Source of the DNA: Acidimicrobiaceae bacterium | GTDB lineage: Bacteria > Actinomycetota > Acidimicrobiia > Acidimicrobiales > Aldehydirespiratoraceae | DNA: 64,000 nt | Direction: 5' to 3' | Assembly (NCBI GenBank): GCA_009837445.1 | Contig: VXTM01000029.1 | Coordinates: 124,001 to 188,000 of the forward strand | In this document: positions 16,793 to 56,688 of the stretch, in pieces | How positions within the stretch are numbered: the stretch's first letter is position 1 | Layout: every line of letters starts with the position of its first letter | The notes under the pieces: generated by a model | The model's input: the letters and a program-made list of their open reading frames with translations, nothing else | What the model was told of the DNA's origin: nothing | The model's database searches: none | Made by a program: the position numbers and the translations under genes

Positions 16793-18232
16793 ATGGAACC
16801 GGTCTCCCGATCGGCGTGGATGACGCTCGCGGTCGTGTCGGTGGCCGTGTTCATGGTCGCGATGGAACTCACGATCATCGCGCTGGCGCTGCCCGACATC
16901 CGCGCCGCGCTGACGGGCACCACCCCGGCGGCACTGTCCTGGGTGGTGAACGCATACTCGATCGTGGTAGCGGCGCTGCTGCTGCTGTCGGGTTGGCTGG
17001 CCGACCGCTACGGCCGCCGGCGGGTCTTCCGCTCCGGATTGGCGCTGTTCGCGCTGGGCTCGGTGGCTGCGGGCGCCTCCACCAGCATCGAGATGCTGAT
17101 AGCGGCCCGGGCTCTGCAGGCCATCGGCGGCTCCATGCAGTACCCCGCAGGAATGGCATTGCTGCTCGACGCCTTTCCCCGGAGCCGGCACCAAACCGCC
17201 ATTGGTGTCTGGGGCGCAACGGGAGGGCTGGCCGCCGCGTTGGGGCCGGCCTTGGGAGCGGTACTCATCGAGGCCTTCGGCTGGCGAGCCGTGTTCTATG
17301 TCAATGTGCCAGTAGCTCTGACCGCTCTGGTGGTCGGGGCCCGTGTGCTTCCCGAGAGCCTGGGCTCTCCCGCTCCCGTTCGCTCCGCTCGCGGGCCGCT
17401 CGGGCCCGGGGAGGCACCCGAGACCAGGGTGGACATGATCGGCGTGCCTCTGGCCTCGGTGGGCGTCGGCGCGGTCATCCTCGGAATCGTCCAGGGTGAG
17501 GCGTGGGGATGGGGATCGGCGCCGACCGTCGGCTCATTCGTGATCGGGGCCCTGCTGGTGGCAGCCTTCGCCTGGCGGAGCCGGCGCCACCCCGCACCGC
17601 TGTTCGACCTCGACCTGCTACGCATCCGTTCGTTCGTGCTCGGCAATGTCGGCTCGCTGTTCTTCGCCCTCGGCTTCTTCGCCCTGCTGGTGCCGCTCCC
17701 ATCCTTCATCCAGGAAGTCTGGGGGTGGTCGGCACTGGAGACCGGCCTCGCGTATTCGATAGGTCCTCTGGTGTCGTTCCTGGTCGCTCCGCAAGCTGGG
17801 CGGCTGGCGGACCGGATCGGCAACTCGCCCCTGCTCACCGTGGGATCGGCCTGCGGCGTGGCGGGGCTGTTGTGGCTCCTGTTCACAATCTCCACCGAGC
17901 CCTCGCTCGGTCGGCTCCTCGTCGCCACCGTGCTGGTGGGAGTGTCGGCCGGCACCGGCTTCTCGCAACTGGTGGGGGCGGCACTGCGCGACATCCCTCC
18001 GCAGCGCTACGCCATGGCCACGGCCGGTCGCACCACCTTCTTCCAGCTGTCGGTCGCGTTCGCCATCGCGGTTGCTTTCGCCCTGATCGGTCGGCCGCCC
18101 AGCCCCGCCGCTGAGCTGGCCGCCTTCAAGCGGGTGTGGGTGCTGTGCACCGGCGGGTACCTCTGCAATCTCGTGCTGTTCACCATCATCTACCCCCGCC
18201 GCCAGGTGTTGCCGGGGAAATGGTCTAGATGA
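16793..18232 (+). CDS. MFS transporter, DHA2 (EmrB/QacA-like) family
   Basis: A 479-residue, 14-helix type exporter from the ATG at 16793; an in-frame TTG nine bases upstream is an alternative start. It shows the DHA2 features: ALPDIRAAL after helix 1, WVVNAYSIV in helix 2, the loop motif GWLADRYGRRRVF between helices 2 and 3, and GSALGPALGA-like glycines in helix 5. Such proteins expel drugs or metabolites using the proton gradient. An unusual loop after helix 6 (residues 193-205, PAPVRSARGPLGP) is encoded by a copy of the window's dispersed 38-bp repeat. The next gene, an LLM oxidoreductase, starts 36 bases downstream. Confidence 0.9.
   Translation: MEPVSRSAWMTLAVVSVAVFMVAMELTIIALALPDIRAALTGTTPAALSWVVNAYSIVVAALLLLSGWLADRYGRRRVFRSGLALFALGSVAAGASTSIEMLIAARALQAIGGSMQYPAGMALLLDAFPRSRHQTAIGVWGATGGLAAALGPALGAVLIEAFGWRAVFYVNVPVALTALVVGARVLPESLGSPAPVRSARGPLGPGEAPETRVDMIGVPLASVGVGAVILGIVQGEAWGWGSAPTVGSFVIGALLVAAFAWRSRRHPAPLFDLDLLRIRSFVLGNVGSLFFALGFFALLVPLPSFIQEVWGWSALETGLAYSIGPLVSFLVAPQAGRLADRIGNSPLLTVGSACGVAGLLWLLFTISTEPSLGRLLVATVLVGVSAGTGFSQLVGAALRDIPPQRYAMATAGRTTFFQLSVAFAIAVAFALIGRPPSPAAELAAFKRVWVLCTGGYLCNLVLFTIIYPRRQVLPGKWSR
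17369..17406 (-). repeat. Dispersed 38-bp repeat, copy 2 (inside MFS coding sequence)
   Basis: Inverted copy of the 38-bp element with a few substitutions, inserted in frame in the MFS gene, where it encodes residues 193-205 of a loop between membrane helices. The reading frame stays open through it. Confidence 0.8.
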
Positions 18233-18268
18233 GCGGCATCCGTTGAGACATCTCGTAGGGTCACGGCC

Positions 18269-19564
18269 GTGAAGTTCGGGATCTTCTACGAACACCAGCT
18301 TCCCCGGCCGTGGCACGAAGGCGACGAGCAGCGGCTGTTCAACGAGGCGCTCGAGCAGGTGGAGCTGGCCGACAGGCTCGGCTTCGATCACGCCTGGGAG
18401 GTGGAGCACCACTTCCTGGAGGAGTACTCCCACTCGTCTGCGCCCGAGGTGTTCCTGGCCGCCTGCAGCCAGCGCACCACCAGGATCCGTCTCGGTCACG
18501 GGATCGTGCTGATGCCTCCCGGCTACAACCACCCGGCCCGCGTCGCCGAGCGAGTCTCCACCCTCGACCTGGTATCGGGCGGCCGGGTGGATTTCGGAAC
18601 CGGCGAGTCGTCATCGATCCTGGAGCTCGGGGGCTTCGGCGTCGACGTAGACAGCAAGCGCCCGGCCTGGCAGGAGGCCGTCGAGCAGTGCTGCAACATG
18701 ATGGCCATGGACCCCTACCCCGGCTATGACGGCGACTTCTTCTCGATGCCGTGCCGCAACGTGGTGCCCAAGCCGGTGCAGAAGCCCCATCCCCCGCTGT
18801 GGGTGGCCTGCTCCAACCGGGAGACCATCAAGCTGGCCGCCCGGCTGGGCATGGGGGCGCTCACCTTCTCGTTCGTCGACCCGCAGGACGCGGCCGCGTG
18901 GGTGCAGGACTACTACCGGATCCTGGCGACCGAATGCGTGCCCATCGGTCACGCGATCAACCCCAACATCGCCATGGTCACCGGACTGTCGGTGCATCCG
19001 GACGCCACCGAGGCCCGCCGCCGGGGCCTCGACGGCTTCCAGTTCTTCGGCTACGGGCTCGGTCACCACTACATCTTCGGCCGGCACAAGCCGGGCCGCA
19101 CCGACATCTGGGCCGACTACCTGAAGGCCAGGCCCACTATGGAGGACCGGGGGGAACAGAGCGGCATCGGCACTCCCGAACAGGTCCGGGCCCACCTTCG
19201 CGGCTTCGCCGAGGCCGGCGTCGACCAGGTGGTGTTCATCCAGCAGGGAGGCAACAACCGCCACGACCACATCTGCGAGACTCTCGAACTGTTCGCGGCC
19301 GACATCATGGACGAGTTCGCCGAGGGCGAGCCGGAGCGGGACCGAGCCAAGCTGGAACGCCTGGCCCCGGCCCTGGACACGGCCATGGCCCGCAAGGTGC
19401 CGATGCCGGCTCTAGCCGACGATGAGATCCCGGTGTTCGAGGCGCTGGGCCGATCCATCGTGGCCGCACTGCCGGCCAAGGAGGCCTCTCAGGTGGCCGA
19501 CACCGTGAAGCAGTGGGCCAAGACCGACATGCCCATCCACGTGCCCGACGACTTCGGTACCTAG
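18269..19564 (+). CDS. LLM-class flavin-dependent oxidoreductase (long form)
   Basis: A 431-residue luciferase-like monooxygenase-family protein from a GTG start. The N-terminal barrel is typical: MKFGIFYEHQLPRPW, WEVEHHFLEEYSHSS, RIRLGHGIVLMPP and the flavin-contact region SGGRVDFGTG. It is longer than the usual 330-350 residues because of a charged C-terminal extension (from about residue 345) ending in a helical region. Members use F420 or reduced FMN on varied small organic substrates, and the cofactor cannot be decided here. Direction and proximity place it with the MFS exporter. Confidence 0.88.
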   Translation: MKFGIFYEHQLPRPWHEGDEQRLFNEALEQVELADRLGFDHAWEVEHHFLEEYSHSSAPEVFLAACSQRTTRIRLGHGIVLMPPGYNHPARVAERVSTLDLVSGGRVDFGTGESSSILELGGFGVDVDSKRPAWQEAVEQCCNMMAMDPYPGYDGDFFSMPCRNVVPKPVQKPHPPLWVACSNRETIKLAARLGMGALTFSFVDPQDAAAWVQDYYRILATECVPIGHAINPNIAMVTGLSVHPDATEARRRGLDGFQFFGYGLGHHYIFGRHKPGRTDIWADYLKARPTMEDRGEQSGIGTPEQVRAHLRGFAEAGVDQVVFIQQGGNNRHDHICETLELFAADIMDEFAEGEPERDRAKLERLAPALDTAMARKVPMPALADDEIPVFEALGRSIVAALPAKEASQVADTVKQWAKTDMPIHVPDDFGT

Positions 19565-19678
19565 CGGCCGAGCGACCTCCATCGACCACCTTCCGGGGCT
19601 CGTACTTTCCTCGCTGACCTTGGAAGGCCGCAATGCTGGCTGCGTATCATGCGTGGGGCTCGACGAGAGGGAGACCGG

Positions 19679-20728
19679 ATGATTCCCATCGGGATGGTCG
19701 GATCCGGAGGAGTAGCCCGTCACGCGGCCCGGCTGCTGCTGAACCATCGCTCCGGCTACGAGCTCGTCGGAGTCTGCAGTGCGGACCCCGACGCCATCGG
19801 CGGTGACATGGCCGAGATAGCCGGCGTGGCGTCGGACAAGCCGATTCCGGTGGTCGGCGCGCTGCCCGAACTGCTGGCCATGGCCCCGATGGCCGTCATC
19901 GACGGGTCCCGTTCGTTCCTGCATCTCATCGTCGATGACGTCGTCGCCTGTGTCGAGGCCGGTGTCAACTTCGTCTCGGCGTGCGAGGAACTCGCCCATC
20001 GCGAGCCAGGTCGGGAGGCCGACTGGGACCGTATCGACGAAGCAGCCCGGCGGGGCGGGGCGTCAGTATTGGGGACGGGGGTCAACCCCGGGTTCATCTT
20101 CGACTTCCTGGTGCTAGCCGCCAGCGGCCTGTGCTGGGACATCGGCAAGATCAACGGACGGCGAGTCGTCGACGTGTCCGGCTTCGGCCGGAACATTCAC
20201 CGTCGTCTGGGAATCGGCTACACCCTCGACGAATTCAACGCGGGCCACGCCGAGGGCTCCATCGCTGGCCATGTCGGATTCCCGGAGTCCATCCGCATGG
20301 TCGTCGAGGGGCTCGGCCTGGAACTCGACGGCCCGGTCACCCAGGAGTTCATCCCCTACGTCGCCACCGACGATGCCCCCACACTGTATGGAGCAGTGCC
20401 GACCGGCTCAACGGAGGGCTTCCTGCACACCGCGAGAGGCCGCGTCAACGGAGCCGAGTTCATGACCCTTGACCTCCTCCTGCACCTGCGCCCCACCGAA
20501 GCAGGGCACGAGGTCGGCGACTCCGTCGACATCGAGGGCGAGCATCCCATCCACATGCGTTTCCGCCCCGGCAACGATGCCCTCTATGCGACATCCGCGC
20601 ACCTGGTCAACAGCATCCCGACCGTGATCGATGCCCCACCGGGAATCAGGCCCGTCAGCCAGCTGCCGGCCGCCCGGGCCTGGTTGGGCGGCTTGAGCGC
20701 GGCCATCGGCACGGGCGCCTATTCGTGA
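19679..20728 (+). CDS. DapB-like NAD(P)-dependent dehydrogenase (2,4-diaminopentanoate-dehydrogenase type)
   Basis: A 349-residue protein. I use the ATG at 19679, which follows a GAGAGGGAGA ribosome site, rather than the ATG at 19649. The N-terminus MIPIGMVGSGGVARHAARLLL is a Rossmann dinucleotide-binding fold. The rest matches the dihydrodipicolinate-reductase/diaminopentanoate-dehydrogenase superfamily, with the conserved GTGVNPGFIFDFLVL segment. These enzymes oxidise an amine carbon or reduce an imine. It opens a cluster with hydantoinase-type genes, overlapping hyuA by 4 bases (GTGA), so the substrate is probably a product of that pathway. Confidence 0.82.
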   Translation: MIPIGMVGSGGVARHAARLLLNHRSGYELVGVCSADPDAIGGDMAEIAGVASDKPIPVVGALPELLAMAPMAVIDGSRSFLHLIVDDVVACVEAGVNFVSACEELAHREPGREADWDRIDEAARRGGASVLGTGVNPGFIFDFLVLAASGLCWDIGKINGRRVVDVSGFGRNIHRRLGIGYTLDEFNAGHAEGSIAGHVGFPESIRMVVEGLGLELDGPVTQEFIPYVATDDAPTLYGAVPTGSTEGFLHTARGRVNGAEFMTLDLLLHLRPTEAGHEVGDSVDIEGEHPIHMRFRPGNDALYATSAHLVNSIPTVIDAPPGIRPVSQLPAARAWLGGLSAAIGTGAYS

Positions 20729-22779
20729 CGCTAGCCAAGCCGCTCCGGATCGGCGTCGACATCGGCGGGACATTCACCGATCTGGTCACCGTCGACAGCG
20801 CGACCGGGGAACTGTCCATGTCGAAGTCGTTCACCACGCCGGCCGATCGCACCGACGGCGTCCTCGAAGTGCTGGCCGAGGGCGGGGTTTCCCTCGGTGA
20901 CGTCAGCCAGTTCGTGCACGGCACGACAACCGCAACCAACGCGGTGGTCGAGCGCAAGGGAGGACGGGTTGGCCTGATCTCGACGGCCGGGTTCCGGGAC
21001 ACGCTGGAGATCATGCGCATCAACCGCGAACGGCACTACGACCTGCAATGGGCGAGCCCGGTGCCGCTAGTGCCCAGGCGCCTGCGCTTCGAGGCGACCG
21101 AGCGGGTGGACTACCGGGGCCGGGTGGTAACCCCACTCGACACCGAGGCCCTGGCCGCGACGGTCGCAGAGATGAAGGCCGCCGCGGTGGAGTCCATCGC
21201 GGTGTGCTTCCTGTTCTCCTTCATGAACCCTGTCCATGAGCGTCAGGCCCGCGACGTCATCAGCCGGGTGTGGCCGGAAGTCCCGGTCTCTATCTCCAGC
21301 GAGATCCTCCCCGAGATCAGAGAGTATGAGCGCTCCAGCACCGTTGTGATCGACGCCTATGTCAAGCCGGTGATGGGCGCCTACTTCGAGAACCTCGAAA
21401 CCCGCCTGGCATCGGGGGGCATGGAGTGCGGCGTGACCGTCATCAGTTCCGGCGGCGGGATCGTGCCTGTGGCCGAGGCCAAGGCCACGCCGGTGCGCAC
21501 CCTGCAGTCGGGCCCCGCGGGCGGCGTCATCGGAGCCGCCCACCTGGGGGCTCAGAGTGGTTACCGGAACCTGCTGGCCATCGACGTGGGCGGCACGAGC
21601 TTCGAGGTGAGCCTGATCGAGGACGGGGTGCCATCGCGCACCACCGAGGGATTTATCGAATGGGGCATCCCCTTCAAGATCCCGCTGGTCGACGTCAAGT
21701 CGATCGGGGCCGGAGGCGGGAGCATTGCCCGGGTCGATCCGGGCGGCCTGATACAGGTCGGACCCGACTCGGCCGGATCAGAGCCGGGCCCGGTCTGCTA
21801 CCGCAAGGGGGGGACGCTGCCCACCCTCACCGACGCCTACGTGACGATCGGGCTCATCGACCCGGCCTACTTCCTCGGCGGCCGGGTCGAACTCGACGCC
21901 GAGGCGGCCCGGGAGGCGATCAGCGGCCAGATCGCCGGTCCCGTCGGCATGACTACGACTGAGGCCGCGCTCGGGATCGTGCGGGTCGCGGAGGCGACCA
22001 TGGTCGGCGCGATGCGCATCGTCTCCACCCAGCGGGGCTACGACCCCCGCGACTACGCCATGATCGCCTACGGGGGAGCCGGACCGGTCTCCGCGGTCGA
22101 GCTGGCGCGAGAACTCGGTGTGGGCACCGTGCTGGTGCCGCGGTTCCCGGGCGCCTTCTGCGCGTTCGGCGGACTGTGCGCCGACATCCGCTTCGACTTC
22201 GTGCGCAGCTATCTGCGCCGCATGGAGGAGCTTGACCTGGCTACGCTCACGACGCTGTCGGAGGAACTCGTCGCCGAGGGCGAGGCCGCGATGAGCCGGA
22301 TCGGGGTCACCGCTCCGCCGATGATGCAGTTCACCGCCGATGTCCGCTACAGCGGCCAAAACTTCGAAGTGAACGTGCCTTTCCCGCCGGGGGAGGTCAC
22401 CGAAGCCACCATCGAGCGGGTCGTCGACAACTTCCACGGGGAGCATCTCCGGCTGTTCGGGCACCACAAGGAGGACGAGGCGCTGGAGTTCGTCAGCCTG
22501 CGGCTCGCGGTGATCGCAGCCACCGGGAAGCCGGAGTTCACCCCGCCCGGGCCCCAAGGAAGCGCCGAGGCCAAGGGCAGCCGGCAGTTGTTCTCGTCGT
22601 CCGGCCAGATCATCGAGGCACCCGTCTTCGACCGGAGCACCCTGCCCGTGGGTTGGGCCCATCCCGGTGCCCTGATCATCGAGGAGCCCGACTCCACCGT
22701 GGTGGTCCGGGGCACCAATGACAGCACCGCCATCGACGACCTCGGCAACATCGTGGTCAGCGTGGCTGAGAGCGGGTGA
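20725..22779 (+). CDS. hyuA: Hydantoinase/oxoprolinase family protein, subunit A
   Basis: A 684-residue ATP-dependent cyclic-amide hydrolase subunit. The start MTLAKPLRIGVDIGGTFTD has the ASKHA nucleotide-binding motif. FVHGTTTATNAVVERKG, LLAIDVGGTSFEVSLI and SIGAGGGSIARVD are the other standard family blocks, and the length fits HyuA/N-methylhydantoinase A. It would use ATP to open a lactam, hydantoin or related ring together with HyuB, or, as in acetone and acetophenone carboxylases, to activate a substrate for carboxylation. The GTG start overlaps the upstream stop, and its own stop overlaps the hyuB start. Confidence 0.92.
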   Translation: MTLAKPLRIGVDIGGTFTDLVTVDSATGELSMSKSFTTPADRTDGVLEVLAEGGVSLGDVSQFVHGTTTATNAVVERKGGRVGLISTAGFRDTLEIMRINRERHYDLQWASPVPLVPRRLRFEATERVDYRGRVVTPLDTEALAATVAEMKAAAVESIAVCFLFSFMNPVHERQARDVISRVWPEVPVSISSEILPEIREYERSSTVVIDAYVKPVMGAYFENLETRLASGGMECGVTVISSGGGIVPVAEAKATPVRTLQSGPAGGVIGAAHLGAQSGYRNLLAIDVGGTSFEVSLIEDGVPSRTTEGFIEWGIPFKIPLVDVKSIGAGGGSIARVDPGGLIQVGPDSAGSEPGPVCYRKGGTLPTLTDAYVTIGLIDPAYFLGGRVELDAEAAREAISGQIAGPVGMTTTEAALGIVRVAEATMVGAMRIVSTQRGYDPRDYAMIAYGGAGPVSAVELARELGVGTVLVPRFPGAFCAFGGLCADIRFDFVRSYLRRMEELDLATLTTLSEELVAEGEAAMSRIGVTAPPMMQFTADVRYSGQNFEVNVPFPPGEVTEATIERVVDNFHGEHLRLFGHHKEDEALEFVSLRLAVIAATGKPEFTPPGPQGSAEAKGSRQLFSSSGQIIEAPVFDRSTLPVGWAHPGALIIEEPDSTVVVRGTNDSTAIDDLGNIVVSVAESG

Positions 22780-24563
22780 GCATGATCGACCAAGTCACAC
22801 TCCAGGTGATCCGCGAGGGGCTGGTGGCCCTGTGCCGCAGCATGGGCCACGCGCTATCGCGCACCGCCTACTCGCCCATCTTCAGCGAAGGGTTCGACTT
22901 CTCGTGCGCACTGTTCGACGGGACCGGCGAGATGGTGGCCCAGGCGGAGTTCAACCCCGTCCATCTCGGTTCGATGCCATACACCGTCGAGTGGACGGTC
23001 AAGGAGATCGGCCTCGACAACCTCGACGAGGGCGACGTCATCCTGCACAATGACCCCTTCCGGGGCGGCACCCACCTGACCGACTTCACAATGATGGCGC
23101 CCGTCTTCTACGAGAACCGGTTGGTGGCCATCCCCGCAGTGCGGGGCCACCAGATCGATGTCGGCGGTTCCGCCCCCGGCGGCTTTCCCGGCGATGCCAC
23201 CGAGATCTTCCAAGAGGGGCTCATCGTGCCCCCGGTCAAGGTCTACCGCCGGGGCGAGCCGGTCTCCGACGTCTGGGACCTGATATTGGCCAATATCCGG
23301 GTTCCCAAGATCGTCCACGGAGACTTCAGAGCCATGTTCGGATCGCTCAAGGTGGCCGAGCGCCGGGTGCAGGAGTACTGCCGCAAGTACGGCCCCGACA
23401 CCTTCGTGGAAGCCAACGAGGAGATCAAGAACTACAGCGAGCGCCGCATGCGGGCCATGATCTCGGCCCTTCCCGACGGCACCTTCGAGGCTGACGACGT
23501 TCTGGACGACGCCGGCACGACGCTGGACCCGGTCAGGGTGCAGTGCCGCCTCACCATAGACGGCGACACCATCACCACCGACTTCAGTGGCTGCGACCCG
23601 CAGGTGCAAGGGCCCATCAACGCCACCTACGGTGTGACCGCCTCGCAGGTGTACACCGTGCTGTTCCAGGTGTCGGACCCGGATATGCCGTCCAACCACG
23701 GTGCATTCCGCCCGATCAGGATCGTGGCCCCGCCCGGGAGCGTGGTCAACGCCGAGTCACCCGCGGCTGTGTTCGGTGGCAACGTCGAGACCTCGTCGCG
23801 GATTATGGACGTGCTGCTCGCCTGCTTCGCTCAGGCGGTGCCCGACCGGGTGATGGGAGCCTGCTTCGGCACCTGCCAGAACTTCACCGGGGGCAGCCAG
23901 CACCCCGAGCTGGACGAGTACTCGATCATCTACGTCTACCACGAAGGCGGCTGGGGGGGCAGGGCCTCGGGCGACGGGCTGACCGCGCAGATCAACCCGG
24001 TCGGCAACGACATGAACCAGCCGGTCGAGATCTTCGAGAGCCGCTTCCCGTGGCGCTACGAGGAGTACTGCATCAACGAGAACAGCGGCGGGCCGGGCTA
24101 CAACCGAGGCGGGCTCGGGATCCGCCAACGCATGCGAGCTCTGTCCGTCTCCAGCTCGATCAACCTGATCGCGGATCGTTTCCGGCACCCCCCGCCGGGC
24201 ACAGGGGGAGGAAAGCCCCCACTGCCATCGGCCGGCGGCCACTACAACGACTTCAGGGTCAAGCTTCCCGGGGCGACGGAGTTCGTGCATGCGACCCAAG
24301 CCTTCGGGACGGTCTCACCATCCAAGTTCGCCGGGCAGGTCGTACCCCGGGACACGGTCGTGGAGAACACCACCACCGGCGGTGGCGGCTACGGAGACCC
24401 GCTCGACCGCGAGCCCGAGCGGGTGGCGTCCGATGTTGTGGAGGGCTATGTGACCGCGGCGGCGGCCGAATCCGAGTACGGCGTCGTGCTGCACAGCGAC
24501 CACAGTGTCGACATCGAAGCGACGCTGGAGACCCGCCGCAGGCTCAGACAGAAGCCTGAATGA
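22776..24563 (+). CDS. hyuB: Hydantoinase/oxoprolinase family protein, subunit B
   Basis: A 595-residue partner of the preceding subunit. Blocks seen: AEFNPVHLGSMPYTVEW, DVILHNDPFRGGTHLTDFT, GFPGDATEIFQEGLI, and the glycine-rich C-terminal GTGGGKPPLPSAGG and TTGGGGYGDPLDREPERV that mark the family. Start is GTG at 22776 (GTGA overlap) or the ATG two codons later. The A/B pair forms a large complex that hydrolyses cyclic amides with ATP. The stop overlaps the E1 alpha start as ATGA, so ring opening and the thiamine-dependent step are co-translated. Confidence 0.92.
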   Translation: MSMIDQVTLQVIREGLVALCRSMGHALSRTAYSPIFSEGFDFSCALFDGTGEMVAQAEFNPVHLGSMPYTVEWTVKEIGLDNLDEGDVILHNDPFRGGTHLTDFTMMAPVFYENRLVAIPAVRGHQIDVGGSAPGGFPGDATEIFQEGLIVPPVKVYRRGEPVSDVWDLILANIRVPKIVHGDFRAMFGSLKVAERRVQEYCRKYGPDTFVEANEEIKNYSERRMRAMISALPDGTFEADDVLDDAGTTLDPVRVQCRLTIDGDTITTDFSGCDPQVQGPINATYGVTASQVYTVLFQVSDPDMPSNHGAFRPIRIVAPPGSVVNAESPAAVFGGNVETSSRIMDVLLACFAQAVPDRVMGACFGTCQNFTGGSQHPELDEYSIIYVYHEGGWGGRASGDGLTAQINPVGNDMNQPVEIFESRFPWRYEEYCINENSGGPGYNRGGLGIRQRMRALSVSSSINLIADRFRHPPPGTGGGKPPLPSAGGHYNDFRVKLPGATEFVHATQAFGTVSPSKFAGQVVPRDTVVENTTTGGGGYGDPLDREPERVASDVVEGYVTAAAAESEYGVVLHSDHSVDIEATLETRRRLRQKPE

Positions 24564-26546: not shown

Positions 26547-26616
26547 CGCAGGCAGTCCAGGCGCCCAGGACGCGGTTTGCATGCCCTGATCTGTAAGAAC
26601 TAATTTCGCATGGTGA

Positions 26617-26637
26617 GTCGGCCGACCGCCGGCCGAC
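26617..26637 (+). terminator. Perfect 8-bp hairpin downstream of the E1 beta gene
   Basis: GTCGGCCG and CGGCCGAC face each other across a 5-base loop, about 70 bases after the E1 beta stop. No clean T-run follows (a short cattttcc lies 12 bases on), so it could be a terminator of the GC-rich type or an operator for the transporter gene downstream. Confidence 0.45.
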
Positions 26638-43066: not shown

Positions 43067-43858
<792 letters not shown>

Positions 43859-43885: not shown

Positions 43886-43923
43886 GGCCCGAGCGGCCCG
43901 TGAGCGAAGCTAACAGGAGCGGG
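43886..43923 (+). repeat. Dispersed 38-bp repeat, copy 3 (intergenic)
   Basis: The copy closest to copy 1, with only two differing positions (GAGCGAAGCTAAC and AGGAGCGGG). It sits in the 127-base gap between binding protein 2 and livF, next to a hairpin. Confidence 0.85.
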
Positions 43924-43968: not shown

Positions 43969-43985
43969 CTGAAGGCCCTAGTGGG

Positions 43986-47003: not shown

Positions 47004-47040
47004 TACACGAGCCCTCCCTGCCGGCGGCCGTCCAACATCG

Positions 47041-48165: not shown

Positions 48166-48202
48166 CAGCGGCGCCCCCGGGCTCGGACTGGTGCGCTGAC
48201 CA

Positions 48203-50089
48203 TCAGTACATCGACTCCACCAGGTCGCGGAACATGTCCTCCATGGCGTTGCGCTTGAGCTTCTGGGTGGCGGTCAGCTCCCCGTCCTCGTGGTCGAGCT
48301 CCTTCGGCAGCATCTTGAACTTCTTGATCTGCTCCACCCGGGCGAACTTCTCGTTGGTCTCGTTCACCACCTTGGAGATGAGCTCGATCACTTCTTCCTT
48401 CTCCGACAGGTCCCGGTAGGTGGTGTAGGGGATGTTGTTGCGCTGAGCCCAGTCGCCCACCGTCTCCAGCTCGATGCCGATGAGTGCGCTCACGAACTTG
48501 CGGCCGTCGCCGATGACCATGGCCTCCTTGACGTAGGGCGATGTCTTGAGGCTGTTCTCGATCTCCGACGGCGAGATGTTCTTGCCGCCCGAGGTGATGA
48601 TGATGTGCTTGATACGGTCGACGATCTTGACGTGGGTGCCGTCCACCCACTCCCCCACGTCGCCGGTCATGAGCCATCCGTCGTCGGTGAACGTCTCCGC
48701 GGTCTGGTCGGGCTTGTTCCAGTAGCCCGCGAACACGCCCGGATGCTTGGTCTGGATCTCGCCGGTCGTCTCGTCGATGCGAAGGCCGATGTCGGCGTAG
48801 GGCTCGCCCACGGTGCCCAGCTTCATCCGGTCCGCGAAATTGCAGGTGGCCACAGCCGAGTTCTCGGTCATGCCGTACAACTCGAACACCGGCACGCCGA
48901 TGCCGATGAAGAACTCGATCACCTCCGGCGCGATGGCGGCCGCGCCCGATCCGGCGTGCCGGCAGCGTCGCAGGCCGATCCGTTCTTTCATCGCCCGGAA
49001 TACCAGCGGCTGGCCCACCGCGTACAGCAGGCGGGTCAACATCGTGTGGCTGCCGCCGTTGGCCACCTTCCGGCGGCCGATCACCCGCGCCAGCGCCATG
49101 GTGAAACGCAGGAAGACCCGCTTGAACGGCGTCGCGTCATTGCCCTTGATGGTCACCAGGGCGTGCAGGCGCTCCCAGATCCTGGGCACCGCGAAGAACA
49201 GCGTCGGCTGCACCTCCCTGAGATTCTCGGTGACCGTCTCGATCGACTCGGCGAAATTGAGCGACGGACCGGCCCCGACCAGCGTCCATGTGGAGAAGAT
49301 CCGCTCCGCCACATGGCACAACGGCAGGTAGGTGACGATCAGATCCCTGGGACTGGGCCCGGTGCCGTCGGGGAACCGATCGACCTCGTTGACGATCTTG
49401 TCGATGCAGTAGGCCGCGTTGGCGTTAGTCAGCATGGCGCCCTTTGGCGGCCCGGTGGTGCCGGAGGTGTAGACGAGCGTCATCACGTCGGTGTCGGTGG
49501 CCTCCGCCATGCGGGCCGCCACCGCACCGGGGTGAGACTCGCGGTGACGGCGTCCCATCTCGAGGAAGTTGTCCCAGAACAGCAGGCGGGGATCGTCGTA
49601 GTCGCTGAAGCCGCGGGGTTCGGTGTAGATGATCCGGCGGACGGATGAGGCTGTTTCTGCCGGGACCTCCAGCACCTTGTCGGCCTGCTCCTGGTCCTCG
49701 GCGAAGAAGATCACGGGAGTGCAGTCCCCGATCAGGTACTCGACCTCAGCGGTGGGGTTGGTCGGGTAGAGGCCGACGGTAATGCCCCGCACGGCCACCG
49801 TGGCCAGGTCGAGGATTACCCACTCGGGCCTGTCCTCGGAGTGGATGGCCACCCGGTCGCCGGCCTCAACGCCCAGTTCCAGAAGGCCGTGGGCTGCGGT
49901 CTCGATCAAGTCCCAGGTATCGGCCCAGGTGTACTCCTGCCAGATTCCGAAGTCCTTCTCGCGCAGGGCGACCTGCCGGGGGTTGCGCCGGGCCCAGTCC
50001 TGGGCCAACGACGCGACTGTGGTCGTCCCGGCTGCGGTACTGGCAGGCGAGGGAACCTCCGGGCTGGGCCGTTCCGAGGTGATGGTCAC
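48203..50089 (-). CDS. AMP-dependent long-chain acyl-CoA synthetase (FadD15-like)
   Basis: A 628-residue adenylate-forming ligase. The AMP motif is LVYTSGTTGPPKGAM, the adenine site is ELYGMTEN, the hinge is DRIKHIIITSGGKNISP and the C-terminal catalytic lysine lies in ATQKLKRN. It activates a carboxylic acid to its CoA thioester, and by family this is a long- or medium-chain fatty acid. Standing in one operon with a Liv-type importer and beside an acyl-CoA dehydrogenase, it probably activates the imported acid. That combination is frequent in actinobacteria and proteobacteria and argues against a simple leucine importer. Confidence 0.92.
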   Translation of the reverse strand: MTITSERPSPEVPSPASTAAGTTTVASLAQDWARRNPRQVALREKDFGIWQEYTWADTWDLIETAAHGLLELGVEAGDRVAIHSEDRPEWVILDLATVAVRGITVGLYPTNPTAEVEYLIGDCTPVIFFAEDQEQADKVLEVPAETASSVRRIIYTEPRGFSDYDDPRLLFWDNFLEMGRRHRESHPGAVAARMAEATDTDVMTLVYTSGTTGPPKGAMLTNANAAYCIDKIVNEVDRFPDGTGPSPRDLIVTYLPLCHVAERIFSTWTLVGAGPSLNFAESIETVTENLREVQPTLFFAVPRIWERLHALVTIKGNDATPFKRVFLRFTMALARVIGRRKVANGGSHTMLTRLLYAVGQPLVFRAMKERIGLRRCRHAGSGAAAIAPEVIEFFIGIGVPVFELYGMTENSAVATCNFADRMKLGTVGEPYADIGLRIDETTGEIQTKHPGVFAGYWNKPDQTAETFTDDGWLMTGDVGEWVDGTHVKIVDRIKHIIITSGGKNISPSEIENSLKTSPYVKEAMVIGDGRKFVSALIGIELETVGDWAQRNNIPYTTYRDLSEKEEVIELISKVVNETNEKFARVEQIKKFKMLPKELDHEDGELTATQKLKRNAMEDMFRDLVESMY

Positions 50090-50143
50090 GCGTCGACCTC
50101 CTTCGCGCTTGCACTCGTAGTGCGCTGAACGGCGAACGCTACT

Positions 50144-51454
<1,311 letters not shown>

Positions 51455-51472
51455 GGGTGGCCTCGCGGTGGT

Positions 51473-51682
51473 CTATGACGACAGCAGTGATGCTAGGGCC
51501 CAAACCGCAGCCACCAAGCCGACGATCATGTAGAGGAGGCAGCGGCCCACCGGGGCCCGTTCCAGGTCGTCGGGGTCACGCCGGTGGGGTCGGGGCCGTA
51601 GCAGCGCGGCCGCGTTGCCGGCAGCCATGGCTCCACCGAGGGCCAGCATCAGCCAGGCCAGGATGTTCTGCCCGAAGAACAC
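51473..51682 (-). CDS. Small two-helix membrane protein
   Basis: A 69-residue protein from GTG, with two hydrophobic segments (ILAWLMLALGGAMAAGNAAAL and LLYMIVGLVAAVWALASLL) joined by a basic/acidic loop RPRPHRRDPDDLERAPVG. It begins 12 bases after the dnaB stop and ends 18 bases before the acyl-CoA dehydrogenase start. I do not recognise a family. Position, hydrophobic pattern and spacing make it a probable real gene. Confidence 0.65.
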   Translation of the reverse strand: MFFGQNILAWLMLALGGAMAAGNAAALLRPRPHRRDPDDLERAPVGRCLLYMIVGLVAAVWALASLLSS

Positions 51683-51694
51683 TCTCAGATGCCT

Positions 51695-53089
51695 CTAGAT
51701 GGCCGAGCGCGCCGCGAAGTTGGCGAAGGTCGTGAACCGGGACAGGAAGGCCAGCGTTGTGGTGGCGGTCGGCCCGTTGCGGTTCTTGGCCACGATGATC
51801 TCGGCAGTGCCCGCGGTGTCGGCGTTGTCGGGGTTGTACACCTCGTCACGATAGATGAACATCACCACGTCGGCGTCCTGCTCGATGGCCCCGGACTCGC
51901 GCAGGTCCGCCAGCATGGGGCGCTTCTGCTGGCGCATCTCGAGGTTCCGGGACAGCTGCGACAACGCCACCACCGGACATTGCAGCTCGCGGGCCAGGAT
52001 CTTCAGGCCTCTTGAGATCTCCGCCACCTCGACCTGGCGGTTGTCCGCGCTCTGCCGGCCGGTCATCAACTGGAGATAGTCCACCACGACCATGGCCAGG
52101 TCGCCGACCTGGCTCTTGAGCCGCCGCGCTCTTGCTCTGATCTCCATCACCGTCACGTTGGGGTTGTCGTCGATCCACATCGGCGCGTCCGAGAGCCGGC
52201 GCATCGCGCCGGTGATCGCGTTCCAGTCGTCATCGTTCAGCCGCCCGTCGCGCATCTTGGTGGAGTCGATCCGGGCTTCGCTGCACAGCAGGCGCTGAGT
52301 CAGTTCCATGTGGCCCATCTCCAGCGAGAACACCAGCACTGGCCGCCGCACCTTTATGGCCGCGTGGGAGGCCATGCCCAGCGCGAAGGAGGTCTTGCCC
52401 ATCGACGGCCGGCCACCCACCACGTACAGGGAACTGGGCTGCAGCCCCGAGAGCAGCTTGTCGAGATCCTTGTAGCCGGTCTCGGTGCCGGTGATCGACC
52501 CGCCGCGCTCGTAGAGCTCCTCGAGACGATCCAGCGTCCCGTCCAGCAGTGACGACAGCTGGACGGTGTTGTCACCAACCTGACCCTGGGCGACCTGGTA
52601 CATCAGGTTCTCGGCCCAGTCCACGGCCTTGGTCACGTCGTCGGGACGGCCGTAGCCCAGCTCGGCGATCTCTGAGGCCACCTCAATCAGGCGGCGCAGG
52701 GTGTGGTTCTCGTGGACGATGCGGGCGTAGGAGGCCGCGTTCGACGTCGCAGGCGTGTTCATCTGGAGCGACAGCAGACCGTCCAGTCCCCCGATGGCCT
52801 CCAGGGAGCCGTTGCGCTCGAGGACCTCGGCCACCGTCACCGCGTCGGCTGGATCCCCCGCGCCGTAGAGATCCCGCACAGCCTCGAACACGCGGGCATG
52901 CGCCGGCCGGTAGAAGTGCTCCGCCGACACCGTCTCGAGCGCGTCGGCTATGGCATCGCGTGACAGCAGCATCGCGCCCAGCAGGGACTCCTCGGCCACC
53001 AGGTTGTGAGGAGGCACGCGCACGTCGCGCCTCTCGCCGCCTGTGTGGGCGGCCGCGTCCCGCCATTGCGACGTGTCGGTAACGGTCAA
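51695..53089 (-). CDS. dnaB: Replicative DNA helicase DnaB
   Basis: A 464-residue hexameric helicase. The N-terminal primase-binding domain starts at RVPPHNLVAEESLLGAMLLS. The RecA-type core has Walker A GGRPSMGKTSFALGMA, the SLEMGHMELTQRLL helix and VVDYLQLM. No intein is present, unlike in several actinobacteria. The start is TTG at 53089; a GTG about 20 codons in is possible. The GGGGGTAG just upstream, which would serve as ribosome site, is one arm of an inverted repeat. Confidence 0.93.
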   Translation of the reverse strand: MTVTDTSQWRDAAAHTGGERRDVRVPPHNLVAEESLLGAMLLSRDAIADALETVSAEHFYRPAHARVFEAVRDLYGAGDPADAVTVAEVLERNGSLEAIGGLDGLLSLQMNTPATSNAASYARIVHENHTLRRLIEVASEIAELGYGRPDDVTKAVDWAENLMYQVAQGQVGDNTVQLSSLLDGTLDRLEELYERGGSITGTETGYKDLDKLLSGLQPSSLYVVGGRPSMGKTSFALGMASHAAIKVRRPVLVFSLEMGHMELTQRLLCSEARIDSTKMRDGRLNDDDWNAITGAMRRLSDAPMWIDDNPNVTVMEIRARARRLKSQVGDLAMVVVDYLQLMTGRQSADNRQVEVAEISRGLKILARELQCPVVALSQLSRNLEMRQQKRPMLADLRESGAIEQDADVVMFIYRDEVYNPDNADTAGTAEIIVAKNRNGPTATTTLAFLSRFTTFANFAARSAI

Positions 53090-53094
53090 GTGTT

Positions 53095-53146
53095 CTACCC
53101 CCGGGAGCGTGCCCGCTGTACCTGAACGAAAGTACCGAGGGGGTAG
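53095..53146 (-). promoter_or_regulatory. Inverted repeat covering the dnaB ribosome-binding region
   Basis: CTACCCCC and GGGGGTAG, 8 bp each and exact, are separated by 36 bases in the leader directly upstream of the dnaB TTG start. The arm nearest the start is the only purine-rich ribosome-site candidate, so pairing could hide it. The spacer holds a further GTAC/GTAC pair. Confidence 0.5.
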
Positions 53147-53241
53147 GACATCGGCCCGCCGCCACTGGGCATGGTGTTGGGGAATTCGCGCGTGCCGCGG
53201 TGGACTGGCGGTGGATTCTGGTGGAAGGGCTGTGGGCAGCC

Positions 53242-53694
53242 TCAGTCGGCCTGCGCTGTCACCTCTACGGTGACGGGCACCTCCACATCGGCGTGCAGGT
53301 GGAACACCACCGTGTGCGAGCCGACTTCGCGGATCGGCGTCTCAAGCATCACCGCCGCCGGGTCGATCACCGCGCCAACCTGCGACTCGACGGCGGCCAC
53401 GATGTCGGCCGGCCCGACCGATCCGTAGAGATGGCCCGTCTCTGCGGCCCGCGCCGCTACCGACAGCACCGCCGGGGCGAGACGCACGGCAATCTCCTCC
53501 GCGTCGGCCCGGTCGGCCGCTCTGCGCAGGGCGGCGCTGCGTCGCATGGCCTCGGCCTGCCGTTCCGCGCCGGGGGACGACTTCAGGGCCAGACCCTTGG
53601 GGACGAGATAGTTGCGAGCAAAGCCTGCAGCCACCTCGCAGACATCCCCCTTGCGACCAAGCCCCTCCACGTCCGCACGCAGGACGACTTTCAC
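53242..53694 (-). CDS. rplI: 50S ribosomal protein L9
   Basis: A 150-residue L9. The signature region [20 protein letters not shown] (residues 9-28) followed by YLVPKGLA is exact for the family; the long central helix and C-terminal RNA-binding domain follow, at normal length. The ATG overlaps the rpsR stop as ATGA. L9 binds 23S rRNA and projects from the L1 side of the ribosome. Confidence 0.96.
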
Positions 53695-54131
53695 GCCCGC
53701 TCCTCCTCGCTGACGAGCAGATCACCGGCCTCAGCGCCATCGCCGTCCATGTCGGAGCCGTCCATGTCGGGCTCGCCGTCATCTGCGGAACCCACCGGAG
53801 GCGGACTGGAGGGACGTGGTACCGGACCGGCGGCACGGCCCCGGCCGTCGCGCTCCTTGTTCTGGCGCTGGGTCGTGACCCGGTTCGCATACGGCACAAG
53901 AGCCATCTCCCGAGCCAGCTTGATCGCATCGGCGACCAGCTTCTGCTGTTGAGCGCTGTTGCCCGTAACCCGCCGGGCCCTGATCTTGGCCCGCTCGGAC
54001 ATGAACTTCTTCAGCAGCTTCTCGTTCTTCCAGTCGACATAGGTGATCCCCTCGGTTGTGAGGAAGCTCACCTTCTTCTTCGCCCGCCGGGTGTTGTCGC
54101 GGGTCTTGCCCCGCATCTTGGTCTTGGCCAC
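53691..54131 (-). CDS. rpsR: 30S ribosomal protein S18 with acidic C-terminal extension
   Basis: A 146-residue protein. Residues 1 to about 90 are S18 ([42 protein letters not shown]), the 16S rRNA-binding partner of S6. S18 is normally 75-90 residues. Here an extra 50-55 residues follow, rich in Pro, Gly, Asp, Glu and Ser ([18 protein letters not shown]), which are very unlike the basic core. The zinc-binding cysteines of some S18 forms are absent. The frame is closed by the rplI overlap, so the tail is not an obvious frameshift. Confidence 0.93.
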
Positions 54132-54170
54132 CTGCAGTTCTCCTCGCCTATCGGCTGCCCACTAAGGCCC

Positions 54171-54653
54171 TTAGAACGGCTCGTCGTCGGAAGTCGACGA
54201 ACCCTGCGGGTGACTGTCGCCCCGGCTCGGCGCCGGCCGCGGACCGCTGTCACCGCGATAGGAGCCGCCGCGGCCGCCGTCGCCGCGATAGTCGCCGCCG
54301 CCAGAACGCTCGTTCTTGGTCACCGCGGCCGTGGCCCACCTCAGACTGGGGGCCACATCGTCGGCAAGGATCTCCACCTTCGAGCGCCGGTCACCTTGAT
54401 CGTTCTCCCAACTTCTTTGCTGGAGAGTGCCGTAGACGACTACGCGAGCGCCCTTCTTCAGCGACTCGGCGACATTCTCGGCAAGCTGGCGGAAGCACGT
54501 GACGTCGAAGAACGACACCTCGTCCTCCTGGTCCTGGCGCCTGCGATTCCAAGCCAGCCCGAACTGGGCTATGGCCATTCCGGACTGCGCGAAGCGCAGT
54601 TCGGGGTCGCGGGTCACGTTGCCCACGACAGTCACGGTGTTGTCGAATCCCAT
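54171..54653 (-). CDS. ssb: Single-stranded DNA-binding protein
   Basis: A 160-residue SSB with an N-terminal OB fold (NTVTVVGNVTRDPELRF, FDVTCFRQLAENVAESL, VVVYGTLQQRSWE), a Gly/Arg/Ser-rich disordered linker, and an acidic tip ending DDEPF. That end is a close variant of the canonical DDIPF with which SSB recruits replication and repair proteins. It sits in the classical rpsF-ssb-rpsR-rplI order. Confidence 0.96.
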   Translation of the reverse strand: MGFDNTVTVVGNVTRDPELRFAQSGMAIAQFGLAWNRRRQDQEDEVSFFDVTCFRQLAENVAESLKKGARVVVYGTLQQRSWENDQGDRRSKVEILADDVAPSLRWATAAVTKNERSGGGDYRGDGGRGGSYRGDSGPRPAPSRGDSHPQGSSTSDDEPF

Positions 54654-54669
54654 GAGGAACCTCCGGATC

Positions 54670-55014
54670 TCAGCCGGCTGCAGCCGGCTCGGCCTCCGCG
54701 AGCAGACCGCGGCGTTCGGCCTCGGTGTCGGGAAGGCGGACTAGTTTGTGGCGGACGATGTCGTCCGCGAGCCGCAGCCGCCGTTCGGTGTCAAAAAGAC
54801 CGGCCGTTTCCGTCACGATCTCCCACACCACATAGGTGCCTTCGGTCTTGTGATTGATCTTGTAGGCGAACTTCCTGCGACCCCAGTTGTCGGTGGACTT
54901 GATGGTCCCGCCCTCACCGACCACCAGGTCGGCAACATTGGAGACCACCGCGTCCGCGTCAGCCGGTGAGACGTCGGAGTCGATGATGATCATCAGCTCG
55001 TAGGCCCGCAGCAC
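54670..55014 (-). CDS. rpsF: 30S ribosomal protein S6
   Basis: A 114-residue S6 from a GTG with a strong GGGAGGTGATC ribosome site. Core motifs YELMIIIDSDV, GRRKFAYKINHKTEGTYV and LVRLPDTEAE are present. S6 pairs with S18 on the small subunit. First gene of the rpsF-ssb-rpsR-rplI-dnaB operon. The leader contains two adjacent hairpins that may be the S6:S18 autoregulatory site. Confidence 0.95.
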   Translation of the reverse strand: MLRAYELMIIIDSDVSPADADAVVSNVADLVVGEGGTIKSTDNWGRRKFAYKINHKTEGTYVVWEIVTETAGLFDTERRLRLADDIVRHKLVRLPDTEAERRGLLAEAEPAAAG

Positions 55015-55035
55015 GGGCGATCACCTCCCTACGGA

Positions 55036-55065
55036 TCCGGCGCTGCCGGAGCCCCTCAACGGGGC
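55036..55065 (-). promoter_or_regulatory. Paired hairpins in the rpsF leader (candidate S6:S18 control element)
   Basis: Two back-to-back perfect hairpins lie 22-51 bases upstream of the rpsF start: GCCCC/GGGGC (stem 5, loop 5; 55051-55065) and TCCGGC/GCCGGA (stem 6, loop 3; 55036-55050). Many bacteria have an rpsF leader with a CCG-containing bulge bound by the S6:S18 dimer. Position fits and CCG occurs here, but I cannot confirm the exact motif. Confidence 0.5.
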
Positions 55066-55224
55066 AGGGTTCGTTGCGAGGCCGAACCCGTCCGGAATCC
55101 GACAAGCGAGCCCGAACTGGATCAGCGAGTGGCCCGCAGGGTATCGGCGGGGCGGTCCATACCAACCAGCGGCGGCATCCCCAGCGATCCACAGGCCCAT
55201 CCCCAGCGAACCGCAGTCACCGCG

Positions 55225-56070
55225 TCAGAACTCAGGAATCCCCAGGGCCGCCAGTTCGGCTTCCGACAGGTGGTAGGACTCCTGCGAGGACGGGAACGCG
55301 CCGGACCGCACGTCGGAGGCGAAGCGCCGCAGTGCGTCGGTCGCCAGGGTGTCGAGATCGGCGTAGCGGCGCACGAACTTCGGCACGAGCCGGGTCTCCA
55401 ATCCGAGCAGGTCATGGAAGACGAGAACCTGGCCGTCGCAGTGGGGACCAGCGCCGATGCCGATCGTCGGTATGTCGACCGCATCGGTGACCATCTCGGC
55501 GACCTGGACCGGCACTCCCTCCAGAACCAGCGAATAGCAGCCGGCGTGGGCCAGCGACTTGGCCGCCTGGACCAGTCGCCGGGCCGCCTCCGCCTGCCGT
55601 CCCTGGACCTTGAAGCCGCCCATGGCGTGCACAGACTGGGGCGTCAGGCCGATGTGGCCCATCACCGGAATCTCGGCGTCGCAGATGCGCTCGATCATCG
55701 GCAGGCGCTTGCGGCCCCCCTCCAGCTTCACCGACTGGGCCCCCGCCCTGATGAGCAGGGCCGCATTCTGCACGGTCTCCTCCGCGGAGACGTGGTAGCT
55801 CATCCATGGCAGGTCGGCCACGATGTGGGCCGCGGGCTTGGCCCGGGCCACGGCTGCGGTGTGGTGGGCCATGTCGCCGACGGTCACCTGCAGAGTGTCG
55901 TCGTAGCCCAGCACGACCATGGCGACAGAGTCGCCCACCAGGATGAGGTCGGCGCCGGCCTGACTCGCCACCCGGGCACCCGGGGCGTCGTAGGCCGTCA
56001 CCATCACAAGCGGGTCGGCGCCGTCACGCACCTTGCGGGCCCGTATGGCGGGCGCGGTGAGCTTGCCCAT
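55225..56070 (-). CDS. panB: 3-methyl-2-oxobutanoate hydroxymethyltransferase
   Basis: A 281-residue PanB, first committed enzyme of pantothenate synthesis, transferring a hydroxymethyl group from methylenetetrahydrofolate to 2-oxoisovalerate. Family blocks: MVTAYDAPGARVASQAG, LILVGDSVAMVVLGYD (metal-binding aspartate), KLEGG, and LVLEGVP (catalytic glutamate region), with IGIGAGPHCDGQVLVFHDLLG near the end (given in part). Length is standard. It follows the DUF5318 gene by about 140 bases. Confidence 0.95.
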   Translation of the reverse strand: MGKLTAPAIRARKVRDGADPLVMVTAYDAPGARVASQAGADLILVGDSVAMVVLGYDDTLQVTVGDMAHHTAAVARAKPAAHIVADLPWMSYHVSAEETVQNAALLIRAGAQSVKLEGGRKRLPMIERICDAEIPVMGHIGLTPQSVHAMGGFKVQGRQAEAARRLVQAAKSLAHAGCYSLVLEGVPVQVAEMVTDAVDIPTIGIGAGPHCDGQVLVFHDLLGLETRLVPKFVRRYADLDTLATDALRRFASDVRSGAFPSSQESYHLSEAELAALGIPEF

Positions 56071-56208
56071 CGGATGCTCCTTTCCGTCCAGCGCGCTGCG
56101 GCTGCCAGCGGGTGCCCGGAACCATACCCGCGGCCGTCTGCGCCGTCAATCAGAGGCCACAGGGCTGGTGCGGGCCGGCCAGGTCTCGGTGACCTGCCCG
56201 GGGGACCC

Positions 56209-56688
56209 TCAGGCCGAGCGCCTGCCCCCGAGCGTGAAGCGGCGCACGAGATGGTTCCATCCGCAGACGGTGCAGACCTCGACCACATACCCGGTCGAGA
56301 CGCTGACGCGATGCTGCAGCCGTTGCATCTCCGCCCGGGTCGTGACACAACGACCGTGCTTGGGCAAGCGCGACCCGAACACGTAGGTCACCTCCACCAG
56401 GTCCCCGCTCTTGTTCGCTGCGCTCACGGGCCGCTCGGCCTCCAGGCCCCCCACCGCGCCCTCCGAATCGCAGACCGGGCATGAGCGGCCGGTCGGTTGC
56501 CCGCAGAACTCGGCGTTCCGTTGGAGCTCGCGCTGAGCGTCGCAGACCTCGTGGCGACCGAGTTGACCCGACCGCCAGGCCCTCAGCGTGGCCGCCCGGG
56601 CGAGCCGGTAGTCCACTGCCGCGGCCACCGGTTGGCCCGGTGCGGCGGCCCGACCGGCGGTGGCCAGCTTCGACGGACTCGGCTTCAC
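56209..56688 (-). CDS. DUF5318-family zinc-ribbon protein carrying an internal repeat insertion
   Basis: A 159-residue protein. Family motifs recognised: VDYRLARAATL, the EVCDAQRELQRNAEFCG segment, SCPVCDSEG, VEVTYVFGSRL and the ending VVEVCTVCGWNHLVRRF. The two CxxC pairs suggest a zinc site. DUF5318 proteins are actinobacterial, of unknown function, and in mycobacteria lie near rpsF as here. Between CPVC and TYVFG this protein has roughly 18 residues more than the family form I remember. Residues 83-95 of that stretch (EAERPVSAANKSG) are encoded by a copy of the dispersed 38-bp repeat. The GTG start overlaps the CCA-enzyme stop. Confidence 0.82.
   Translation of the reverse strand: MKPSPSKLATAGRAAAPGQPVAAAVDYRLARAATLRAWRSGQLGRHEVCDAQRELQRNAEFCGQPTGRSCPVCDSEGAVGGLEAERPVSAANKSGDLVEVTYVFGSRLPKHGRCVTTRAEMQRLQHRVSVSTGYVVEVCTVCGWNHLVRRFTLGGRRSA
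56404..56440 (-). repeat. Dispersed 38-bp repeat, copy 4 (inside DUF5318 coding sequence)
   Basis: A 37-base copy, one base shorter than the others, in the same orientation as the gene. It encodes residues 83-95 without breaking the frame. Confidence 0.8.

What the first reader, a model, noticed from the sequence alone, without database searches (positions are those of the whole stretch)
17369..56440. A 38-bp element dispersed five times, two copies inside protein-coding genes
Copies at 782-819, 17369-17406, 43886-43923, 56404-56440 and 62823-62861 share blocks GGCCCGAGCGG, GAGCGAAGCGAAC and a GAGCGGG end, in both orientations. Three are intergenic. One lies in frame in an MFS loop (residues 193-205) and one in the DUF5318 protein (residues 83-95), in opposite orientation relative to the gene. 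Both frames stay open. In the DUF5318 protein the element falls exactly where the protein is longer than the family form I recall. This resembles Rickettsia palindromic elements, which add peptides to proteins, but would be a different family in an actinobacterium.
Basis: partly seen in the sequence, partly recalled or inferred. Interest (0 to 1): 0.8.

Follow-up and report, generated by a model that had tools for sequence, protein, structure and literature searches.

The report
Mini-transposon landing in genes and stops
A short jumping piece of DNA, probably moved by a common type of transposase, has spread to dozens or hundreds of places in the genomes of a group of uncultured actinobacteria, usually between genes and often exactly at stop codons, but now and then inside proteins, where it adds a new stretch of amino acids.

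Summary
The 38 bp are the conserved core of a MITE of about 136 bp. The window's genome holds 59 cores with at most 3 mismatches (reversed-pattern control 0); 15 of 16 genomes of the genus carry it, up to 246 copies, and 13 of 395 class genomes, in four families. The element's ends (YNA|GAGGCCGAGCGGATAGGTGA...CACCTATCCGCGCACGCTC|YNA) nearly match those of IS5-family insertion sequences in relatives. There is a 3-bp target duplication, and clean empty sites exist. In-frame insertion into proteins is shown by presence/absence: DUF5318 (+19 aa here, +50 in G004, 4 in G008, none in 13 of 16), an MFS transporter (7 of 15 genus orthologs), and PolA of another MAG (absent from 28 of 28 distant PolA). 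Genic copies are the minority. The element often sits at a stop codon (33 of 112). At shared sites the core diverges 1.0% against 10% for the adjacent 3' arm: it is constrained or homogenised after insertion, which is unexplained. In-frame MITE insertion is known from Rickettsia and other bacteria; this is a new family with a probable parent.

The parts
729..731 (+). TAA: stop codon of the FAD-dependent oxidoreductase gene (30-731) and left 3-bp target duplication
   Evidence: (ORF 30-731); empty ortholog in G008 reads ..GGGC CTGAGG..
732..867 (+). full-length element GAGGCCGAGCG...CGCGCTTGCTC (136 bp), IS5-type ends, core at 782-819
   Evidence: empty site in G008
782..819 (+). 38-bp conserved core (hairpins GGCC-CGAGC-GGCC and GTGAGC-GAA-GCGAAC, read by eye)
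   Evidence: loop and stem variants
868..870 (+). TGA, right target duplication (left copy now TAA)
16820..18232 (+). MFS transporter gene carrying an in-frame copy
17369..17406 (-). core copy inside the MFS gene, opposite to the gene; about 15 extra residues (PAPVRSARGPLGP region)
   Evidence: present in 7 of 15 genus orthologs (this one counted), absent in 8 and in 4 from other genera of the family
43886..43923 (+). intergenic core copy, filled also in G008 and G004 (2 of 38 core differences in each)
56209..56688 (-). DUF5318 gene carrying an in-frame copy
56402..56458 (-). 57-bp in-frame insertion (19 aa, AVGGLEAERPVSAANKSGD) holding the core at 56404-56441
   Evidence: absent in 13 of 16 genus genomes; 50 aa in G004; 4 aa in G008
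62823..62861 (+). probable decayed core copy, intergenic, after the DegV gene
   Evidence: orthologs not examined

Best explanation
It is a family of non-autonomous miniature elements (MITEs), about 136 bp when complete, mobilised in trans by an IS5-family transposase. SHOWN: the ends nearly match those of IS5-family insertion sequences in related genomes; two-ended copies have an excess of 3-bp duplications; most anchored copies of the window's genome lack their core at the same site in relatives about 5% diverged, several with clean empty sites; copies sit inside proteins in frame, with empty orthologs. INFERRED: the transposase acts on these ends in trans; insertion at a stop codon is tolerated because the duplication rebuilds the stop, which would explain the excess there; copies within genes survive only where length and reading frame allow (5 of the 6 frames of the core are open) and in tolerant protein loops, then shrink by deletion. 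The core probably has a role of its own, in the element or in the host, because it stays conserved at fixed sites while the neighbouring arms decay.
For: Copy number and spread. Ends: left GAGGCC..., right ...GCTC. 3-bp duplication: 13 of 73 two-ended copies have identical flanking triplets against 3.4 in shuffles (none of 20000 reached 13), no excess at 4 bp. Parent: 5 PF13340 matches in 3 of 16 genus genomes. ISs in L209/L211 begin TAA|GAGGCCGCGCGGGTAGGTGA or TTA|GAGGCCGCGCGGGTAGGTGA (one base different from the element in the first 12) and end GCACGCTC|TAT or GCACGCTC|TTA; L210 has exact CAA duplications. L362 has exact TAA; L368 (G090) begins GAGGCCGAGCGGGTAGGTGA, the element's own first 12 bases; 7 of 8 copies in G125 have identical flanking triplets (CAG, CGG, CTG). 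The L209 protein passes NCBIfam IS5_3 (142 bits, cut-off 110). Empty sites: of 45 anchored cores 34 are missing in G008; of 39 anchored, 24 in G004, e.g. L009 with TCA duplicated only in the filled site. Proteins.
Against: Only 18% of two-ended copies keep identical triplets. Between a third and nearly half of copies lack a recognisable right arm (57 of 173 by a permissive test; 81 of 184 by another), so many are deleted or moved some other way. Genomes with the most copies (G006, G007, G010) show no relative of this transposase at E<=1e-40 nor a PF13340 match; the window's genome has only a partial relative. Draft genomes often lose ISs (recalled), so this is inconclusive. Of the five PF13340 loci, L207 was not shown to have these ends and L208 is cut at its left. 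The core is not in the ISs read. Several filled/empty pairs have ragged junctions, and at least four core-less sites in G008 (L001, L022, L227, L230) keep a piece of the 5' arm: losses, not unfilled sites.
Confidence: 0.86

Rival explanations
1. Host function: the 38-bp core is a regulatory or structural RNA/ssDNA hairpin (or protein-binding site) kept by selection; the transposon only delivers it.
For: In 13 filled pairs (12 sites) left after dropping genic copies, one array and one misalignment, the core differs at 5 of 494 positions, the 3' arm at 62 of 622 and flanks at 639 of 13329 (Fisher p 2e-11 and 6e-6). The most variable base of the core is the loop base of GTGAGC-GNA-GCGAAC; GCAA loops occur twice; GC/GC becomes AC/GT in 4 copies. 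H1 has linked two-sided alternatives.
Against: Most anchored copies come and go between relatives; genic copies decay; G001 has none at the search threshold and G013 five. Constraint at transposition plus gene conversion among identical copies would look similar. 'Filled' needed at least 30 aligned core columns, so strongly decayed cores fell among the partial or empty rows.
Confidence: 0.3
2. REP/RAYT system: short palindromes moved by a Y1 (HUH) transposase.
For: Short, intergenic, many copies, a stem with tandem G.A mismatches on one strand, tandem copies.
Against: PF01797 matches 0 of 16 genus genomes while ringing in 5 of 14 controls; 3-bp duplications and IS5 ends.
Confidence: 0.03
3. 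Gene conversion or recombination spreads the core among existing sites, with little true transposition.
For: Identical cores inside very different arms; tandem arrays of 43-46 bp units; the L001/L049 site holds different numbers of cores in two genomes.
Against: Clean whole-element empty sites with target duplications.
Confidence: 0.1
4. Chance or composition: GC-rich motif similarity.
For: One sub-block alone is at chance level.
Against: 59 long matches against 0 for the reversed control; empty sites.
Confidence: 0

Closest known systems
Rickettsia palindromic elements (RPE)
   Same: Short dispersed element (about 150 bp), found between genes and in frame inside conserved proteins (review passages PMC10969869; PMC2229807).
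   Different: Other phylum; here mostly intergenic; three different reading frames and both orientations seen in genes; a probable IS5 parent and 3-bp duplication found, whereas PMC2229807 lists the RPE target duplication as '?'. No sequence comparison with RPEs was made.
ERIC, YPAL/RU-2 and Correia MITEs
   Same: Small, stem-loop forming, occasionally fused in frame to genes (PMC2229807 passages).
   Different: No sequence comparison made here; that review's table lists TA at the ends for ERIC and Correia, while this one uses YNR triplets; a separately conserved core.
IS5-family insertion sequences (NCBIfam IS5_3, PF13340)
   Same: Nearly the same ends, and a 3-bp target duplication, in ISs of the same genus and order.
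   Different: The element has no transposase gene and carries a structured core not seen in the ISs read.
REP elements with RAYT transposases
   Same: Short, many copies, intergenic, hairpins.
   Different: No Y1 transposase in 16 genomes; different ends.

Membership tests
MITE | short, many dispersed copies, no transposase gene | tested here: met
MITE | terminal inverted repeats shared with an autonomous element | tested here: met
   near-identical ends, one base different in the first 12 for two ISs, none for a third
MITE | target-site duplication of the parent's length | tested here: met
   3 bp in both; only 13 of 73 copies keep it identical
MITE | mobilised in trans by the parent's transposase | not testable with these tools
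   needs an assay
IS5-family derivative | transposase of the parent passes the IS5 model | tested here: met
   NF033580 142 bits, cut-off 110; Pfam PF13340 and PF01609
Rickettsia palindromic element | occurs in Rickettsia | tested here: not met
Rickettsia palindromic element | matches an RPE family by sequence | not tested
   no RPE sequence was compared
Rickettsia palindromic element | in-frame insertion into conserved proteins | tested here: met
REP/RAYT | Y1_Tnp transposase in the genome | tested here: not met
   0 of 16, 5 of 14 controls ring
known Rfam RNA | match at gathering score | tested here: not met
   Searches (0 in window; 700-900 only) best is 13.9 bits, cut-off 33.6

The most novel reading that the evidence does not exclude
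The transposon is a delivery vehicle for a small folded nucleic-acid device: after landing, often on a stop codon, the 38-bp hairpin core is held by selection at that site as a 3'-end RNA (or ssDNA) element of the host gene, while the transposon arms rot away. In a few proteins the same device has instead become new peptide sequence.
Probability: 0.3. Interest if true: 0.8.

Novelty: new member of a known kind. Interest (0 to 1): 0.55.

Why it matters
Mobile DNA that writes itself into proteins is best known from Rickettsia, where as far as I recall the mover is not identified. Here the probable mover, the landing rule (YNR, very often a stop codon), the empty sites, and different stages inside one protein (50, 19, 4 and 0 extra residues in sister genomes) can all be read from sequence. 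The conserved core raises a testable question: whether a MITE can seed host-selected 3'-end elements.

Tried and rejected
Folding the 38-mer alone: weaker than shuffles, so no simple palindrome; the structure appeared only with the 5' arm and its variants. RAYT transposase: none. Viral carriage: 0 exact matches in IMG/VR. Rfam: nothing. A first estimate of core conservation from pairs both fetched by their cores was biased; I replaced it with the flank-anchored test. Automatic search for IS ends by inverted-repeat seeds failed; the ends were found by pattern, then checked by duplications. My reading that the loops are hypervariable guides was dropped: the long loops keep a weak family consensus by eye. 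An automated 8-pair stem score is only slightly above its shuffles (0.573 against mean 0.517, maximum of 2000 shuffles 0.561); it includes wrongly placed 5' strands and counts G.A as unpaired. The stem rests on four linked haplotypes (120, 19, 11 and 2 of 244 copies) and on L338 and L341, read by eye. In notes I wrote 153 bp for the G004 DUF5318 insertion; counting the residues gives 50 aa, 150 bp. PolA: 30 loci given, 28 aligned, 2 dropped by my frame picker. Copies in L113 (AMP-binding), L232 and L235 lie in called genes but have no empty-site proof in protein alignments. My gene caller was not checked against a standard one.
Full report
Observation. The five stretches are in the window. Four are close copies; the fifth (62823-62861) is a probable decayed copy. 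The genome (3.9 Mb, 52 contigs, window = C31:124001-188000) has 54 matches with at most 3 mismatches to one form of the core and 59 to the commoner form, with 0 for the reversed pattern. Of 16 genomes of the genus searched, 15 carry it (5 to 246 copies) and one, G001, has none. In a class-wide draw, 13 of 395 genomes have it: 9 in the window's family and 4 in three other families, with one to three copies each. IMG/VR gave 0 exact matches. Several isolate names look like sponge metagenomes; that is recalled, not tested.

Anatomy. Aligned flanks show that the 38 bp are the middle of a longer unit: YNA|GAGGCCGAGCGGATAGGTGAG..., a loop of variable length, GCGAGGCCGT, then the core, then AATGACACCG..., CACCTATCCGCGC.CGCTC|YNA. 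In the window the complete copy is 732-867 (136 bp), with TAA at 729-731 and TGA at 868-870. By a permissive test 116 of 173 copies have a right arm and 57 do not; by another, 103 of 184 do. Tandem arrays of the core with 43-46 bp period occur.

Structure. On one strand GGCCGAGC pairs with GCGAGGCC around a tandem G.A step. Linked alternatives are GGCTGAGC/GCGAAGCC, GGCCCCGC/GCGGGGCC and GGGCGCCC/GGGCGCCC; the four occur in 120, 19, 11 and 2 of 244 copies, the rest being rarer or broken forms, and an automated score over all haplotypes is only slightly above its shuffles. Within the core, GTGAGC-GNA-GCGAAC has C, A, G or T at N (173, 49, 23, 3 copies), GCAA in 2, and AC/GT instead of GC/GC in 4 copies, three in a distant family (L338-L340) and one in L199. 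The 38-mer alone folds no better than shuffles, and Rfam has nothing. Whether the folded strand is RNA or single-stranded DNA is not known.

Mobility. Among 73 two-ended copies, 13 have identical flanking triplets against 3.4 by shuffling, with no excess at 4 bp. Y1 (RAYT) transposases are absent from 16 genomes while 5 of 14 controls ring. PF13340 transposases occur 5 times in 3 of 16. Two of these ISs (L209, L211) have nearly the element's ends, and L211 and L210 have exact 3-bp duplications (TTA, CAA); L209 has TAA and TAT. With the L209 transposase as query, 11 of 61 genomes have matches at E<=1e-40, including a partial one in the window's own. One in G090 starts with the element's first 12 bases, GAGGCCGAGCGG, and 7 of 8 copies in G125 have identical flanking triplets. 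The protein is an IS5-family transposase by NCBIfam and Pfam.

Turnover. Flank pieces of 55 copies were searched in G008 and G004, both about 5% diverged. Of 60 cores (array members counted apart), 45 could be anchored in G008 (34 without the core, 7 filled, 4 partial) and 39 in G004 (24, 12 and 3); the other 15 and 21 had no anchored pair. Four of the core-less rows in G008 are members of one array (L001). At least four core-less sites there keep part of the 5' arm (L001, L022, L227, L230), so they are losses. Junctions such as L009 (TCA duplicated in the filled site, single in both relatives), L225 and L226 are clean; others are ragged.

Where it lands. With my own codon-usage gene caller, 154 of 170 placeable copies are intergenic, 6 inside genes and 10 over a gene end; another 19 lay at contig edges and were not placed. 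Called coding fraction is 0.88. In the window's genome 53 of 60 cores are intergenic. Where a co-oriented gene ends within 300 bp of the left end, its stop codon is the duplicated triplet (13) or is offset by one base (20) in 33 of 112, while distances of 11-100 bp together hold 28; on the right 13 of 33. The copy at 732 sits on the stop of the oxidoreductase gene; the empty site of G008 reads CTGAGG there. Sense copies between tandem genes outnumber antisense 56 to 32 (p 0.014).

Proteins. DUF5318: 13 of 16 genus genomes, and the relatives aligned from outside it, lack any insertion; the window has 57 bp (19 aa), G004 150 bp (50 aa, 5' arm plus two cores) and G008 12 bp (4 aa), all in frame at one point. 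MFS: 7 of 15 genus orthologs, the window's own counted, carry an in-frame copy in one loop; 8 do not, nor do 4 from other genera of the family. PolA of MAG JAJDZE (L063) has about 29 extra residues, REAEPAGEAVARAARERSEQGREAQGDLQ, absent from 28 of 28 aligned PolA; those are distant (30-odd to 47% identical in the searched piece), and the nearest relatives of that MAG were not seen. Three different reading frames are used.

Core constraint. Over all filled pairs the core differs at 14 of 722 positions, the 3' arm at 93 of 896, the 5' arm at 50 of 871 and flanks at 954 of 19223 (summed; tests). Dropping genic copies, one array and one misalignment (13 pairs at 12 sites left): 5 of 494, 62 of 622, 33 of 646 and 639 of 13329. 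The copies were chosen for intact cores in G000 only; the relatives were not so chosen, but 'filled' required at least 30 aligned core columns. In an arm-based search of the same genome 8 of 9 copies had a recognisable core, one of them damaged at its left end. Selection on the core or gene conversion could both explain this.

Known or new. Reviews describe in-frame MITE insertions in Rickettsia, Neisseria and enterobacteria (PMC10969869 and PMC2229807, passages read). In the open-licence library, two searches pairing Acidimicrobiia with repeats or MITEs found no paper, and a third gave one genome survey, seen in the listing only. I file it as a new MITE family of the IS5 type, with an unexplained conserved core.

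Noticed in passing
L001 1501 to 1691 (G000 C4:18209-18399): Array of four identical cores with 44-bp period and AAACAC spacers, interrupted by a run of ten N; G004 has one core there and G008 none.
   Followed up: partly
L215 and L231 (G000 C39:143378 and C21:196276): Twin cores in tandem; at L231 the filled site duplicates ACCAGAGGC, a target resembling the element's own end.
   Followed up: partly
L255 and L257: Core with GCAA instead of GNA loop (one base longer) in two copies, missed by the substitution-only search.
   Followed up: partly
L063 4843-7647: DNA polymerase I with an in-frame copy of the element in its middle part.
   Followed up: yes
L113 4197-6368: AMP-binding enzyme gene with an in-frame copy (EAEPSGEAVARAARERSEQERD); orthologs not checked.
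   Followed up: no
L235 1307-4171: 955-aa called gene with an in-frame copy near its 3' end, also filled in G008 and G004.
   Followed up: partly
L363, L371, L373, L375-L379 (G125): Eight IS5-family copies in a single-contig genome of the same order, 7 with identical CNG flanking triplets, all in GC..GCA surroundings as if a longer target were preferred.
   Followed up: partly
L349: About 103-bp tandem repeat carrying a core in each of three units in G320.
   Followed up: no
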